From contig JAHEGY010000022.1 in assembly GCA_024644875.1 (NCBI GenBank), positions 1 to 49,576 on the forward strand: DNA of 49,576 bases. The letters run 5' to 3'. A program made the position numbers and the translations under genes. Shown here piece after piece: positions 45,320-49,576 of the stretch (position 1 is the stretch's first letter; each line of letters begins with the position of its first letter). This DNA comes from Cyclobacteriaceae bacterium (lineage in GTDB: Bacteria; Bacteroidota; Bacteroidia; Cytophagales; Cyclobacteriaceae). A model generated the notes under the pieces. That model saw nothing but the letters and a program-made list of their open reading frames with translations. It ran no database searches and was not told where the DNA came from.

Positions 45320-47752
45320 TTAAATGGTAAAACAGGCGGAGCCGAAACAAACTCTGAAGGTACGGGTGCTCCAGTTTGGATTGATTATGTAACTTCCGGA
45401 ATATAATGTGCCTCCAAATGGTCCCTTTATGGTTCCGGTACCTCCTAAAGCGACTCCCGTATTCTTTACCGTAACGCCAACATTCGAACTGAATGTTCCA
45501 ATACTTACATTGGCTGAGTATTGATAACTCCCTGTTAAAACAAATTGCCCGCCTGTTGAAATGGATCCTGATACAGTTGTAGTAAAAATATACAGGCTCA
45601 TTCTTCCGGATAATGTAATTCCTGCAGCATTGCTGGCACTTATCGACGAATTGGTATATTGAAATGTATGTCCTGCTACTGTCAGTCCGGTAGTAAGATT
45701 CCCGCTAAATGATGCATCTTCAGGTGTCAGATTGCCATTCATCCTGGCTGTAGCCAAACCGGCCGGCAGACGAAATGATCCATCTAAAAATACGCCTCTG
45801 GAATTTGAAATAGTTAAACTGGCATTTGAAATAGGCATGGTCACTCCAGCAATATTGATGTCTCTATTCACGATGCCTGTTAGTGAAATTTCCGATGAGT
45901 TGATCACACCTTCAACATAATTGTAGCCCAGATGAGGAATATCAAGTTCTCCCATCAGGTAAAAACCCTCATCAGGATCTGTAGAAGTTCTGATGGTGAA
46001 TTCTCGGGATGGCAGTTCAAAACCAAGCTCTAGGTCCAGTCCATTGGTTATATTTCCTTCAAAACTCAATTTTTCACTACTGAATACAGCAATTACGTCA
46101 GCTTCGGTAACACCATAGGGAAGGGTAACAGAACCTTCAAGATAAACGCCCCGATCGCTTGTAACTTTTATTTTTAAATCCCGGGAACCAAGTGTAATGC
46201 CATTTGGTAATGTTATATCCTGATCATAGGCGGATTCAAATTCAAATCCATCCCGGGTTATTCTACCTGTGAATCTCCTGTTATATTCAAGAATTCCATA
46301 GCTGGGCAAGTCGAAGTGTCCTTCTGCATAAATTTCATCCTCATTGATATAAAAATGCGAATCCGAAAAATCAACTTCTCCAAGTCCGGGCAGGTTCATT
46401 GTAGAAGAGGACTCCACAAATAATGACCAGTCTTCCAGGTCGTTACCAATACTTAAAAACATATATCCTTCAGAAGTAGGTTGTGTTGGCATATATTGCC
46501 GGATATCCTCATGGAGGATCTCCGATAATAAAGGCCGGGTAAATTCACCGCCGAATTTCAAAAAAGAATTGCCCGGTTCCAATTGATATTGCAGGGTGCC
46601 TGCAACAACATCCAGGTTAATTTCTTCATTGAATACATTCCCAATGAAACCGTTGGCATTTGGTAAAACGCCAAGTATCAATCCTATACCTAAACCACCC
46701 ATATCAAAACTGCCATTGGCACTTACACGGTAGCTTAGATCGATGTTGGCTGCAGGATCACTGACCCAGTCAAGAAATGCCTGTTCTCTGTCTTCTATAA
46801 TGTCTTCAGGAGGAATGGTAAAGCTTTCCACGGGATAGCCAATATAGGATTCAGCATTGATCTGGAATAGGGGTAATGGAGGAAATGCAATGCCAGCCGC
46901 TCTGTGATATGAATGTGTATTAAAACTTTCAAATCCTTCATATCCCAATAGTTCAAACATTTTATCATTTTGGAACGGATACTCCTCTGAGATAATTAAG
47001 CCCTGATTAGACCAGGCATAGGCAATACCTCCTTCTATTCCTACATTGGGTATATTTCCTCCTTTGTCAGAGATTTTTCCGGCCAGCTTCTGCAGGATAC
47101 TTTTATCTCCGGAAGGTGGTTTGGGTACCAGTAGCGGAGCCTTAAAAAATACAGAGGGGTCAAGTATGTCAATATAGAAGTCCACAAAAGAATAGATCAT
47201 CCCATTTACAGTGTTTTTAAGTTCGTAGCGATCTCCTTTTGTTTCATCCAAAACTTTGATGTGGAAGTATTTCCGATCATCGGTAAGCGGAAGATCCGTG
47301 TCATATTGTTCTTTGTAATAAGCCCCTGTCTCATATTCAAAATGAGAAGTTACCGCTGACCATGCAAATGTTTTCAGCATTTCGGCAAATATCCCGACTC
47401 TCGGAAATTCAGGTATACCGGTACCGCTTATCTTTTCAATTTCATCTCCAGGACCAATGATCACTTCAAAATTTCCCTCACCGATTTTAAAGGTGTCTTC
47501 CAGGTTATTTTCACCGATCAGAGCACCCTCAAAAGTATACCCATCATCATTTTTTTCAAGACTAGTCGCTTCAAAAATGAAATTTCCGACTTCTTCGATG
47601 CTTGCCGGACCATTTACATCCTTCCCAGCATTATCATTTACTACAACTCCGGGATCAACACTTTCCTTTTCACACGCTGTAAAAAGGAAAGAAAGCAAAA
47701 CTATAGATATCATTCCATAGCTTTGCATGAAATTTTTAATGGTTGTTTTCAT
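45320..47752 (-). CDS. 810-residue repeat lipoprotein, probable surface adhesin/solenoid
   Basis: The product is a lipoprotein (FLFTAC, Cys27) of unrecognised family. Residues 30-450 are a mixed domain (ESYIGYPVESFTIPPEDII near 301-319). From about 465 the chain consists of repeats of 55-62 residues whose core is a G-[VIF]-x-L-x-G-x-[FLVM]-x-[LI]-P motif: positions 473, 535, 596, 653, 711 and 766. Within a unit a second S/F-x-G-x-[IL]-T/x-x-G segment follows about 25 residues later. The high Gly/Ser/Thr content and alternating strands suggest a beta-solenoid or beta-sandwich array. Two Cys (802, 807) end the chain. Positioned next to the HTCS regulator with a 21-bp direct-repeat site upstream, it is probably under that regulator. 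Confidence 0.72.
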   Translation of the reverse strand: MKTTIKNFMQSYGMISIVLLSFLFTACEKESVDPGVVVNDNAGKDVNGPASIEEVGNFIFEATSLEKNDDGYTFEGALIGENNLEDTFKIGEGNFEVIIGPGDEIEKISGTGIPEFPRVGIFAEMLKTFAWSAVTSHFEYETGAYYKEQYDTDLPLTDDRKYFHIKVLDETKGDRYELKNTVNGMIYSFVDFYIDILDPSVFFKAPLLVPKPPSGDKSILQKLAGKISDKGGNIPNVGIEGGIAYAWSNQGLIISEEYPFQNDKMFELLGYEGFESFNTHSYHRAAGIAFPPLPLFQINAESYIGYPVESFTIPPEDIIEDREQAFLDWVSDPAANIDLSYRVSANGSFDMGGLGIGLILGVLPNANGFIGNVFNEEINLDVVAGTLQYQLEPGNSFLKFGGEFTRPLLSEILHEDIRQYMPTQPTSEGYMFLSIGNDLEDWSLFVESSSTMNLPGLGEVDFSDSHFYINEDEIYAEGHFDLPSYGILEYNRRFTGRITRDGFEFESAYDQDITLPNGITLGSRDLKIKVTSDRGVYLEGSVTLPYGVTEADVIAVFSSEKLSFEGNITNGLDLELGFELPSREFTIRTSTDPDEGFYLMGELDIPHLGYNYVEGVINSSEISLTGIVNRDINIAGVTMPISNASLTISNSRGVFLDGSFRLPAGLATARMNGNLTPEDASFSGNLTTGLTVAGHTFQYTNSSISASNAAGITLSGRMSLYIFTTTVSGSISTGGQFVLTGSYQYSANVSIGTFSSNVGVTVKNTGVALGGTGTIKGPFGGTLYSGSYIINPNWSTRTFRVCFGSACFTI

Positions 47753-47793
47753 GGTTCTAAAATTTTGGTTTAAAGTTTGATAAAATCATTTAC

Positions 47794-47801
47794 CAAAATT
47801 G
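47794..47801 (-). promoter_or_regulatory. Weak -7 box for the repeat lipoprotein gene
   Basis: On the minus strand CAATTTTG is one mismatch from TAnnTTTG, 42 bp before the ATG. No TTG lies at the -33 position. The HTCS repeat abuts that position (47830-47860), as expected for an activator-dependent promoter. Confidence 0.3.
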
Positions 47802-47829
47802 AATTTTAAAACCAGGTGAAGCCTAGTAG

Positions 47830-47860
47830 ATTTGTCGCAGATGCTATAAAATTTGTCGCA
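47830..47860. promoter_or_regulatory. Tandem direct repeat, predicted AraC/HTCS binding site
   Basis: ATTTGTCGCA occurs at 47830-47839 and again at 47851-47860, identical over all ten bases and exactly 21 bp apart, that is two helical turns. AraC-type DNA-binding domains use such tandem same-face sites. The pair sits 78-108 bp upstream of the repeat lipoprotein start, between that gene and the regulator, oriented for activation of the lipoprotein gene. Confidence 0.65.
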
Positions 47861-47898
47861 TATACCCTTATTCTGTAAAAAAAGGGCTCAAATATTTG

Positions 47899-49576
47899 CT
47901 ATAATTTTGAAGATTTGTTTGAAAGTTGTGCATCAAGTTTTGAGGGAAGATATCCAAATTGCTCCTGGAAACACTTCGTAAAATAAGACGGACTGCCAAA
48001 TCCAACCTGATAGGCAATTTCGGATGCTGTAGCAGAATTTTGCTGTAGCAAATCCTGGGCTCTCTGTAACCTGAAACGCCGGATAAACTGATTGGGTCCT
48101 GTGTCCAGCAACGCAGATAATTTCCTGTGCAATTGGGATCGGCTCATACCAAGTTCATCACTCAGTTTCTCTACACCAAACTTTTCATTACCCAGATTTA
48201 ATTCCACGACTTCTATTAGCCGGTTAAGGAATTTCTCATCTATTGAATTAACCGTAATGTCTTTTGGTTTAAGGGTGCCTTCCTTTTTATACTTCTCCCT
48301 GAGTTTCTTTCGTGACTCGATTATATTATCTATCCTGGCCAGCAATTCTCTGGGTATGAATGGCTTGGTAACATAATCATCAGCATTGGTTTGCAATCCT
48401 TCAATTTTATTTTCAATATCAGACTTTGCAGTTAATAGAATAATTGGGATGTGGCTTGTCTTTTCATCGATCTTAAGATTAAGGCATACTTCATATCCAT
48501 TTTTTTTAGGCATCATCACATCACTGATAATGAGATCGGGTATATTTTCCTTTGCCTTTTCAATACCATTTTCACCGTCTTCTGAATAGATAACACGATA
48601 CTTGTCTTCTAAAATTCCAGCAATGTACCTTCTCACATCCTTGTGATCTTCAATCAGAAGAATAAGAGGTAAATTTTTATCTACAGGTTTCATTCCTTTC
48701 GATGTTTCAAATTCTTCGTCATACATTACAATTGATTTTTCCAAGGGAGGTTCTGCTTCCACGAGTAATGGCGATTCTGTTAGCCTCAGATTGGTTGGGA
48801 TTTCAAATATTATCTGCATGCCCTTACCAAGTCCGCTTTTCGCTGAGATGCTGCCATTATGAAGTTCCACCAGTTCCTTAGTTAAAGCGAGTCCTATTCC
48901 AGATCCTTCCTGTTGTAATAATTGGTTATTATCAGATTGATAAAAACGATTAAAAATCTGAACCACATCTTCTTGTGGTATTCCATTACCATCGTCAGAA
49001 ACCTCTATGAAAAAGTATTCCAGATCGCTTCCGTGTTCATTCCCGGTGGTAACACCTGACCGAACTGTTATTTTTCCATCTGCCGGGGTAAACTTAAAAG
49101 CATTTGAAAGGAGATTGATCAGGATTGTTTCCATCTTTTCCCTATCATAGTTCATTTCCAGGTGTGTCGGCAAAATGTCGATTTCCAGATCGATTCTTTT
49201 TTGCTCCGCAATAGAATGAAAAGACATGGTTACACCTTTGATTACAGAGATAATATCCGACCTTGAAATATTAAGCTTCAAATTACCCGATTCAATTTTA
49301 GAAAGGTCAAGAAGTTGATTTACCAGATCTAATAACCTGACTGCATTACGTTGTAATACCTTCAATTGTTTCCTGAATTCTGGTATTTCGATTTTGTTGA
49401 TCATGTCATCAAGTGGCCCCAGGATCAATGTAAGTGGTGTGCGAAATTCATGTGATATGTTGGCAAAGAAGCGTGATTTCAACCGGTCCATTTCTTGTTC
49501 TTTCTCCAGTAATTGACGGTTCTTTCTGTTCCTGATCCGCTGCTGATAATATAATAGAAATAAAAACAGTGAAATG
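47899..49576 (-). CDS. Hybrid two-component regulator (HTCS), cut by the right window edge
   Basis: The visible end has, in order, a hydrophobic span (ISLFLFLLYY at the edge), a coiled coil to RQLLEKEQEMDRLKSRF, HisKA with phospho-accepting His in FANISHEFRTPL, HATPase (ILINLLSNAFKF, VSDDGNGIP, GSGIGLALTKELVELH), a receiver domain (LIEDHKDVRRYIAG, phospho-Asp in LIISDVMMP, TKPF) and an AraC-type DNA-binding end (EIAYQVGFGSPSYFTKCFQEQFG). The ATG at 49491 is inside the frame; codons continue uninterrupted to the edge, so the periplasmic sensor lies outside. Regulators of this type bind released oligosaccharides and activate glycan-use genes. The direct repeats at 47830-47860 are its likely site, and the repeat lipoprotein gene its likely target. 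Confidence 0.93.
   Translation of the reverse strand, partial: ISLFLFLLYYQQRIRNRKNRQLLEKEQEMDRLKSRFFANISHEFRTPLTLILGPLDDMINKIEIPEFRKQLKVLQRNAVRLLDLVNQLLDLSKIESGNLKLNISRSDIISVIKGVTMSFHSIAEQKRIDLEIDILPTHLEMNYDREKMETILINLLSNAFKFTPADGKITVRSGVTTGNEHGSDLEYFFIEVSDDGNGIPQEDVVQIFNRFYQSDNNQLLQQEGSGIGLALTKELVELHNGSISAKSGLGKGMQIIFEIPTNLRLTESPLLVEAEPPLEKSIVMYDEEFETSKGMKPVDKNLPLILLIEDHKDVRRYIAGILEDKYRVIYSEDGENGIEKAKENIPDLIISDVMMPKKNGYEVCLNLKIDEKTSHIPIILLTAKSDIENKIEGLQTNADDYVTKPFIPRELLARIDNIIESRKKLREKYKKEGTLKPKDITVNSIDEKFLNRLIEVVELNLGNEKFGVEKLSDELGMSRSQLHRKLSALLDTGPNQFIRRFRLQRAQDLLQQNSATASEIAYQVGFGSPSYFTKCFQEQFGYLPSKLDAQLSNKSSKL

What the first reader, a model, noticed from the sequence alone, without database searches (positions are those of the whole stretch)
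47830..47860. Two identical 10-bp direct repeats, 21 bp apart, between an AraC-type HTCS gene and a lipoprotein gene
Seen: ATTTGTCGCA at 47830-47839 and 47851-47860, no mismatch, spacing of two helical turns. Established: AraC-family domains bind tandem same-face half-sites about 21 bp apart. Inference: this is the HTCS site activating the gene at 47752, since a -7-like box (47794-47801) lies just downstream with no -33 box. It gives a candidate motif for finding the rest of the regulon.
Basis: partly seen in the sequence, partly recalled or inferred. Interest (0 to 1): 0.62.

Follow-up and report, generated by a model that had tools for sequence, protein, structure and literature searches.

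The report
Switch site for neighbouring lipoprotein gene
A pair of identical short DNA words 21 bases apart is very probably the landing site of the sensor-regulator encoded next door, which would use it to switch on one neighbouring surface-lipoprotein gene; the architecture is already known from gut Bacteroides, but here it serves a single gene rather than a sugar-use gene set.

Summary
In detail: ATTTGTCGCA occurs twice, 21 bp apart, in the 146-bp gap between an AraC-type hybrid two-component regulator (HTCS) and an 810-aa lipoprotein gene, and nowhere else in the window. Comparative evidence supports an HTCS operator. The pair recurs behind the HTCS in 5 of 11 examined relatives with the closest DNA-binding domains (56-77% identity), including the one found with the same gene pair, and in 0 of 20 more distant ones. 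In a motif-blind scan of 56 HTCS, downstream direct repeats peak at exactly 21 bp (10 HTCS, 0-2 at any other spacing). Each unit is bipartite, TGCGACA-N7-TAG on the HTCS strand. A -7-like box lies 30-31 bp behind in 17 of 30 such sites.

Intact relatives carry TPR sensors; the gene behind varies and in two is a Thiol_cytolysin-family lipoprotein. The architecture was published for Bacteroides in 2013: a new member of a known kind. Binding and activation are untested. A recognition-helix residue tracks one operator base in the discovery set, not significantly in the follow-up set.

The parts
47899..49575 (-). 3' part (558 aa) of an AraC-type hybrid two-component regulator: HisKA, HATPase_c, response-regulator and AraC HTH domains; the 5' part with the sensor is cut off by the contig end
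   Evidence: Pfam; the window is the whole contig C201 of the assembly; the sensor part was not found elsewhere in the assembly with the G188 sensor as query (best hit 30% identity, in a 648-aa frame)
47844..47860 (-). distal operator unit TGCGACAAATTTTATAG (core 10-mer 47851-47860)
   Evidence: conserved pattern
47823..47839 (-). proximal operator unit TGCGACAAATCTACTAG (core 10-mer 47830-47839)
   Evidence: conserved pattern
47794..47801 (-). -7-like box CAATTTTG, 31 bp behind the second TGCGACA
   Evidence: a TAnnTTTG box with at most 1 mismatch lies at offset 30 (12) or 31 (5) in 17 of 30 such sites, at most 2 sites at any other offset up to 67
45320..47752 (-). predicted target: 810-aa lipoprotein (LFTAC lipobox, Cys27), C-terminal part beta-rich, no known domain
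   Evidence: no Pfam or NCBIfam match; orthologue behind the same HTCS in G188 (39% identity); Cys27 kept in all 5 sequences aligned; structure model

Best explanation
The repeats are the operator of the adjacent HTCS. Inferred mechanism: when the sensor perceives its signal, the phosphorylated receiver lets two AraC domains bind head to tail on one face of the DNA. Each protomer reads about 17 bp: TGCGACA with one helix-turn-helix and, about one helical turn on, TAG with the other. The proximal protomer covers the place where a -33 box would lie and holds RNA polymerase at the -7-like box, so the lipoprotein gene 45320-47752 is switched on. Shown by sequence: the repeats, their bipartite form, their conservation with the HTCS DNA-binding domain, and the recurring spacing to a -7-like box. 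Inferred: binding, activation, the signal, and the function of the lipoprotein.
For: (1) Of 31 HTCS relatives with DNA held, the 11 with 56-77% HTH identity include 5 whose downstream DNA holds the same 9-mer pair at 21 bp with at most 2 mismatches of 18 (G272, G080, G188, G001, G310). Three more of the 11 hold other TGNNACA pairs at 21 bp: G044, G196 and G220. In the 20 with at most 55% identity no TTTGTCGCA pair was found (up to 4 mismatches). (2) G188 carries the same gene pair, lipoprotein orthologue 595 bits. (3) Motif-blind: in the downstream DNA of 56 HTCS, near-perfect repeats (9 or more of 10) occur at offset 21 in 10 HTCS, at other offsets 11-60 in 0-2. TGNNACA pairs: 11 HTCS at 21, at most 1 at any other offset 10-60. 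(4) In 60 further regions, all from other families: exact TGNNACA pairs at 21 bp at 15 places (17 counts, two places counted on both strands), other offsets 14-30 at 0-1. (5) -7-like box at offset 30-31 in 17 of 30 sites. (6) General pattern in 10 whole genomes: 27 hits against 11 for the reversed control; the window's site is the only hit in its genome.
Against: No binding or expression data. Three of the 11 closest relatives show no TGNNACA pair at 21 bp: G258, a broken HTCS remnant, G097 and G160. A twelfth relative at 56% (G188:C171) was not and shows none either. Many HTCS lack a clean pair: 45 of 56, and 46 of 60 regions, where targets may lie outside the DNA fetched. Allowing one mismatch weakens the follow-up contrast: 34 counts at offset 21 against 3-17 at others. 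The same-genus relative G001 has a degenerate distal half (TATTTCGCA). The -7-like box misses one fixed letter, and 13 of 30 sites lack it at 30-31, among them the close relatives G188 and G272.
Confidence: 0.85

Rival explanations
1. The repeats bind another AraC-type or unrelated regulator encoded elsewhere, and the HTCS gene is only a neighbour.
For: The own genome holds other hits to this DNA-binding domain (4 further matches at E <= 1e-26). Binding was not tested.
Against: The letters follow the identity of the adjacent HTCS DNA-binding domain even where the downstream gene is unrelated. The site is absent next to the broken HTCS remnant in G258.
Confidence: 0.09
2. Chance repeat without function in an AT-rich gap.
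For: 827 of 20,000 shuffles of the gap give some exact 10-mer repeat; in 103 of 108 stretches with an exact match elsewhere no HTCS was found; family-wide, 9 pattern hits stand against 10 reversed-control hits.
Against: Exact spacing of 21 in only 16 of 20,000 shuffles; conservation across genera beside the matching HTCS; peak at 21 bp in two sets.
Confidence: 0.02
3. Repressor or autoregulatory site: the HTCS binds here but reduces transcription, or the site serves a transcript reading back into the HTCS gene.
For: The AraC family includes proteins that repress (recalled).
Against: The site lies behind the HTCS, not in front of it. A -7-like box lies on the lipoprotein side at a recurring distance, as expected for activation. 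In 20 of the 22 HTCS listed the next gene has the same orientation.
Confidence: 0.04

Closest known systems
HTCS operators of Bacteroides (Ravcheev et al. 2013, PMC3878776; abstract and passages seen)
   Same: Direct repeats averaging 21 bp apart for 16 HTCS, read as dimers on one DNA face two helical turns apart, in front of regulated genes; similar motifs go with similar DNA-binding domains.
   Different: Those control sugar-use loci and were inferred in gut Bacteroides. Here the HTCS relatives form a TPR-sensor group, the genome is probably of Cyclobacteriaceae, and the site faces one lipoprotein gene with no SusC or SusD match among the 27 window proteins scanned. The distance to a -7-like box did not appear in the passages seen.
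XylS/Pm of Pseudomonas putida (review PMC5481539; passages seen)
   Same: AraC-family activator on two direct 15-bp repeats, each box A TGCA, 6 bp, box B GGTA, with contact to RNA polymerase. Works alike: bipartite unit, direct repeats.
   Different: XylS responds to benzoates through its N-terminal domain, not through a histidine kinase and receiver; box sequences and host promoter type differ.
Bacteroidota CDC-like toxins (PMC11169675; passages seen, some from the abstract)
   Same: Two HTCS relatives here (G001, G272) precede lipoproteins of the same Pfam family, PF01289.
   Different: The window's own target has no PF01289 match, and no PF01289 match was found in its genome. The CDC-like proteins in that paper are encoded in pairs or triplets; the two here were not tested for partners or activity.

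Membership tests
HTCS (hybrid two-component regulator) | histidine kinase, receiver and AraC-type HTH in one polypeptide | tested here: met
   HisKA, HATPase_c, Response_reg and HTH_18 all above Pfam cut-offs
HTCS (hybrid two-component regulator) | N-terminal periplasmic sensor domain | tested here: inconclusive
   cut off by the contig end; not found elsewhere in the assembly; all 5 intact relatives scanned carry TPR repeats in that position; topology not tested
HTCS of the canonical COG3292 polysaccharide-sensor type | COG3292 sensor domain and co-location with SusC/SusD | tested here: not met
   5 of 5 relatives scanned have TPR sensors; no SusC or SusD match among the 27 window proteins scanned with Pfam, a few ORFs not scanned. 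The window's own sensor is missing
HTCS operator as described for Bacteroides | direct repeat with about 21 bp between units | tested here: met
   exactly 21 bp; peak at 21 over 56 HTCS and over 60 further regions
HTCS operator as described for Bacteroides | conserved in front of orthologous target genes | tested here: met
   G188, same gene pair, 2 mismatches of 18; one case only
HTCS operator as described for Bacteroides | bound by the cognate HTCS | not testable with these tools
   needs EMSA or footprinting
XylS-type AraC operator | bipartite direct-repeat units (box A and box B) | tested here: met
   over 26 sites chosen for TGNNACA: T at position 12 and A at 16 (20 of 26 each in both units) and G at 17 (14 and 15 of 26); likeness of design, not membership

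The most novel reading that the evidence does not exclude
A phylum-wide operator grammar, TGNNACA-N4-T-N3-AG twice at 21 bp and about 30 bp in front of a -7-like box, would let the targets of many HTCS be read off genomes, partly from recognition-helix residue 480 (S to C, M to T, V to A or G at the third base). TPR-sensor HTCS like the relatives of this one would form a separate arm that controls exchangeable surface or secreted proteins, among them cytolysin-family lipoproteins, rather than glycan use.
Probability: 0.3. Interest if true: 0.65.

Novelty: new member of a known kind. Interest (0 to 1): 0.42.

Why it matters
It turns a 10-bp observation into a testable operator with defined units, geometry and target, and shows that the published Bacteroides HTCS design extends to a TPR-sensor group in relatives outside Bacteroides, where the next gene often encodes a single secreted or surface protein. 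If the wider grammar and the residue-to-base link hold, targets of many uncharacterised HTCS could be predicted from sequence.

Tried and rejected
Regulon search with the 9-mer pair: own genome, 1 exact site plus two with 3 mismatches against 2 control hits. Public genome collection, exact pattern: 108 stretches, of which 5 (L039, L062, L084, L110, L136) hold an HTCS with receiver and HTH by my criteria; at least six others (L048, L095, L114, L124, L130, L144) are runs of 21-bp repeats; the rest were not examined one by one. The stretches are fixed tiles, so some flanks are short. Family-wide pattern search at up to 1 mismatch: 9 of 390 genomes, 9 sites, against 10 reversed-control hits, so the letters alone do not prove function.

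Residue-480 rule: fixed in a note before the follow-up regions were fetched. Discovery set, 23 HTCS: S or T with C in 10 of 10, M with T in 10 of 10, V with A or G in 3 of 3. This includes near-duplicate pairs, sites found at 1 mismatch, and five M cases where only the first half is TGTTACA. Follow-up set: S 4 of 5 (one in one half only, one 4.5 kb from the HTCS), T 2 of 6 (two of the four misses are near-duplicates; in L280 the pair is on the other strand), M 1 of 1; two further places (L290, L295) had no HTCS by my criteria and were left out. S against non-S p = 0.24. Kept as a hypothesis only.

Cytolysin link as a general rule: rejected. PF01289 gave 45 matches in 40 of 370 genomes. Besides G001 and G272:C353 there are 43; of the 30 held as loci with up to 1.5 kb on each side, 0 have an HTCS HTH domain or, on the gene's strand, a TGNNACA pair at 21 bp.

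Structure of the lipoprotein: model mean pLDDT 61.7 from 5 sequences, residues 491-810 at 71-90 by blocks and all beta; no PDB match at E <= 0.001. The weak LptD-like hits were not used. No PADLOC match for it, its G188 orthologue or the two cytolysin-family proteins. The window's sensor part was sought in the own genome without success. The generic promoter and terminator scan found nothing in 47700-48000. Passages of PMC11253607 and PMC12125979 gave nothing used here.

Full report
WHAT IS THERE. The 10-mers ATTTGTCGCA at 47830-47839 and 47851-47860 are exact and are the only two copies in the window. Both flanking genes are on the minus strand: the HTCS ends at 47899 and the lipoprotein gene starts at 47752, leaving 146 bp. 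The site therefore lies behind the regulator and in front of the lipoprotein. Shuffling the gap gives an exact 10-mer repeat at exactly 21 bp in 16 of 20,000 trials. The only other match of 9 or more letters at 21-bp offset in the window, 11 bp from 45803, lies inside the lipoprotein coding sequence.

THE NEIGHBOURS. The regulator fragment has kinase, receiver and AraC-type domains. The window is a whole contig, and the sensor is cut off; a search for it elsewhere in the assembly found nothing convincing. The five intact HTCS relatives scanned (G188, G080, G001, G044, G310) all carry TPR repeats in the sensor position. The 810-aa downstream protein has a lipobox and no Pfam, NCBIfam or PADLOC match. 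Its modelled C-terminal part is all beta, with no PDB match at E <= 0.001. No SusC or SusD match was found among the 27 window proteins scanned; glycoside hydrolases of families 3, 9, 18 and 106 are present. Taxonomy: G250 C16 matches a contig of Cognataquiflexum rubidum by length and site position, which places family f1 in Cyclobacteriaceae (inference).

CONSERVATION FOLLOWS THE DNA-BINDING DOMAIN. Relatives were chosen by HTH similarity. Of 31 with DNA held, 11 have 56-77% HTH identity and 20 have 55% or less. Five of the 11 hold the TTTGTCGCA pair at 21 bp with at most 2 mismatches, 37-283 bp behind the HTCS stop: G272, G080 (exact), G188, G001 (same genus), G310. G044 and G196 hold TGCAACA pairs, and G220 a TGAAACA pair. 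G258 (broken HTCS remnant), G097 and G160 show none. A twelfth relative at 56%, G188:C171, was not and shows no TGNNACA pair. None of the 20 others showed the TTTGTCGCA pair at up to 4 mismatches; for one of them, L160, only a few hundred bases could be searched. G272 and G310 were met in the pattern search before the HTH search, and G080 in both ways. The downstream genes differ: an orthologue of the window lipoprotein in G188 (39% identity), Thiol_cytolysin-family lipoproteins in G001 and G272, large proteins with secretion-system tails in G080 and G044, an unknown 543-aa protein in G310. The site therefore travels with the regulator rather than with one target.

A GENERAL GRAMMAR. Seventy-four loci were searched for HTCS genes and 56 were found, the window's included. 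I scanned the DNA behind each, up to the next ORF or 800 bp, without assuming a motif. Near-perfect repeats occur at 21 bp in 10 HTCS and at every other spacing from 11 to 60 in 0-2. Dropping the window and G310 leaves 8, two of which (G220, G239) are near-duplicates. In front of the HTCS the numbers are 4 at 21 and 0-3 elsewhere, and two of those 4 loci (L039, L110) had been picked by the pattern. On the HTCS strand the words share TGNNACA: 11 of 56 at 21 bp, at most 1 at other spacings from 10 to 60. Sixty further regions, all from other families but some from the same genome, give 15 places at 21 bp and at most 1 at any other spacing from 14 to 30; with one mismatch allowed it is 34 counts against 3-17. 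I found an HTCS gene by my criteria in 46 of these 60 regions. Over 26 sites each unit also tends to share T at position 12 and A-G at 16-17, so the unit is bipartite, as in XylS. In the window the units are TGCGACAAATTTTATAG and TGCGACAAATCTACTAG.

PROMOTER GEOMETRY. A TAnnTTTG box with at most one mismatch lies 30 or 31 bp behind the second TGNNACA in 17 of 30 sites and in at most 2 at any other offset (recounted as distinct sites; the 30 include near-duplicates). Thirteen lack it there, among them G188 and G272. The window's box is at 31. The TAG of the proximal unit lies 22 bp in front of the box, where a -33 box would be. Activation by taking the place of the -33 contact is the natural reading; it is inferred.

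NO REGULON. Own genome (97% complete): one exact site and none with 1 or 2 mismatches; with the general pattern, T at position 12 included, also one site in 5.06 Mb and no reversed-control hit. In ten genomes that pattern gives 27 hits (one place counted on both strands) against 11 reversed-control hits. Ten of the 27 loci have an HTCS-type HTH within the DNA held; five of those ten were already known to me.

RESIDUE AND BASE. In the discovery set the recognition-helix residue equivalent to 480 tracks the third base of TGNNACA in all 23 HTCS with a pair, counting the first half only in five asymmetric cases. The rule was written down before the follow-up regions were fetched. There it held for S in 4 of 5 and M in 1 of 1 but failed for T in 4 of 6, and is not significant. 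It remains a lead.

PRIOR ART. Direct repeats averaging 21 bp apart were published for 16 Bacteroides HTCS in 2013 (PMC3878776, abstract and passages). In the listings of searches I saw no paper on TPR-sensor HTCS operators or on the distance to the -7 box; motif logos in figures and most subscription papers could not be seen.

VERDICT. An HTCS operator in front of one dedicated lipoprotein gene: sound, useful, of a known kind, and not yet tested at the bench.

Noticed in passing
L175:2724-4313 (G001) and L176:5195-6877 (G272): The gene directly behind the related HTCS encodes a lipoprotein of the Thiol_cytolysin family (E 1.2e-19 and 4.6e-35), while the window has an unrelated lipoprotein at that place.
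   Followed up: partly
L224, L237, L238, L240, L241: A recurrent asymmetric pair behind HTCS genes in five genomes: TGTTACA, 14 bp, then TGGGAGAT or TGGGAAAT instead of a second TGNNACA.
   Followed up: no
L191, L192, L193: Distant homologues (22%) of the window lipoprotein, 718-722 aa, lie behind a gene of 243-277 aa whose product looks like a membrane barrel, with a long TPR protein ending in a CHAT-like part next to it in L192 and L193 (my reading of the sequences; not scanned). No HTCS gene was seen among the ORFs listed.
   Followed up: no
L154 (G258:C209): A remnant of an HTCS with 75% HTH identity and a stop inside, with no repeat pair beside it.
   Followed up: partly
L048, L095, L114, L124, L130, L144: Runs of TTTGTCGCA at 21-bp steps in various bacteria; they inflate hits of the exact pattern.
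   Followed up: no
window 47889-47898: Palindrome CAAATATTTG directly behind the stop codon of the HTCS gene.
   Followed up: no
L375 (G044): Several TGTTACA/TGTAACA words at 21-bp steps in a row, so that pairs are found on both strands; no HTCS-type HTH within 1.5 kb.
   Followed up: no
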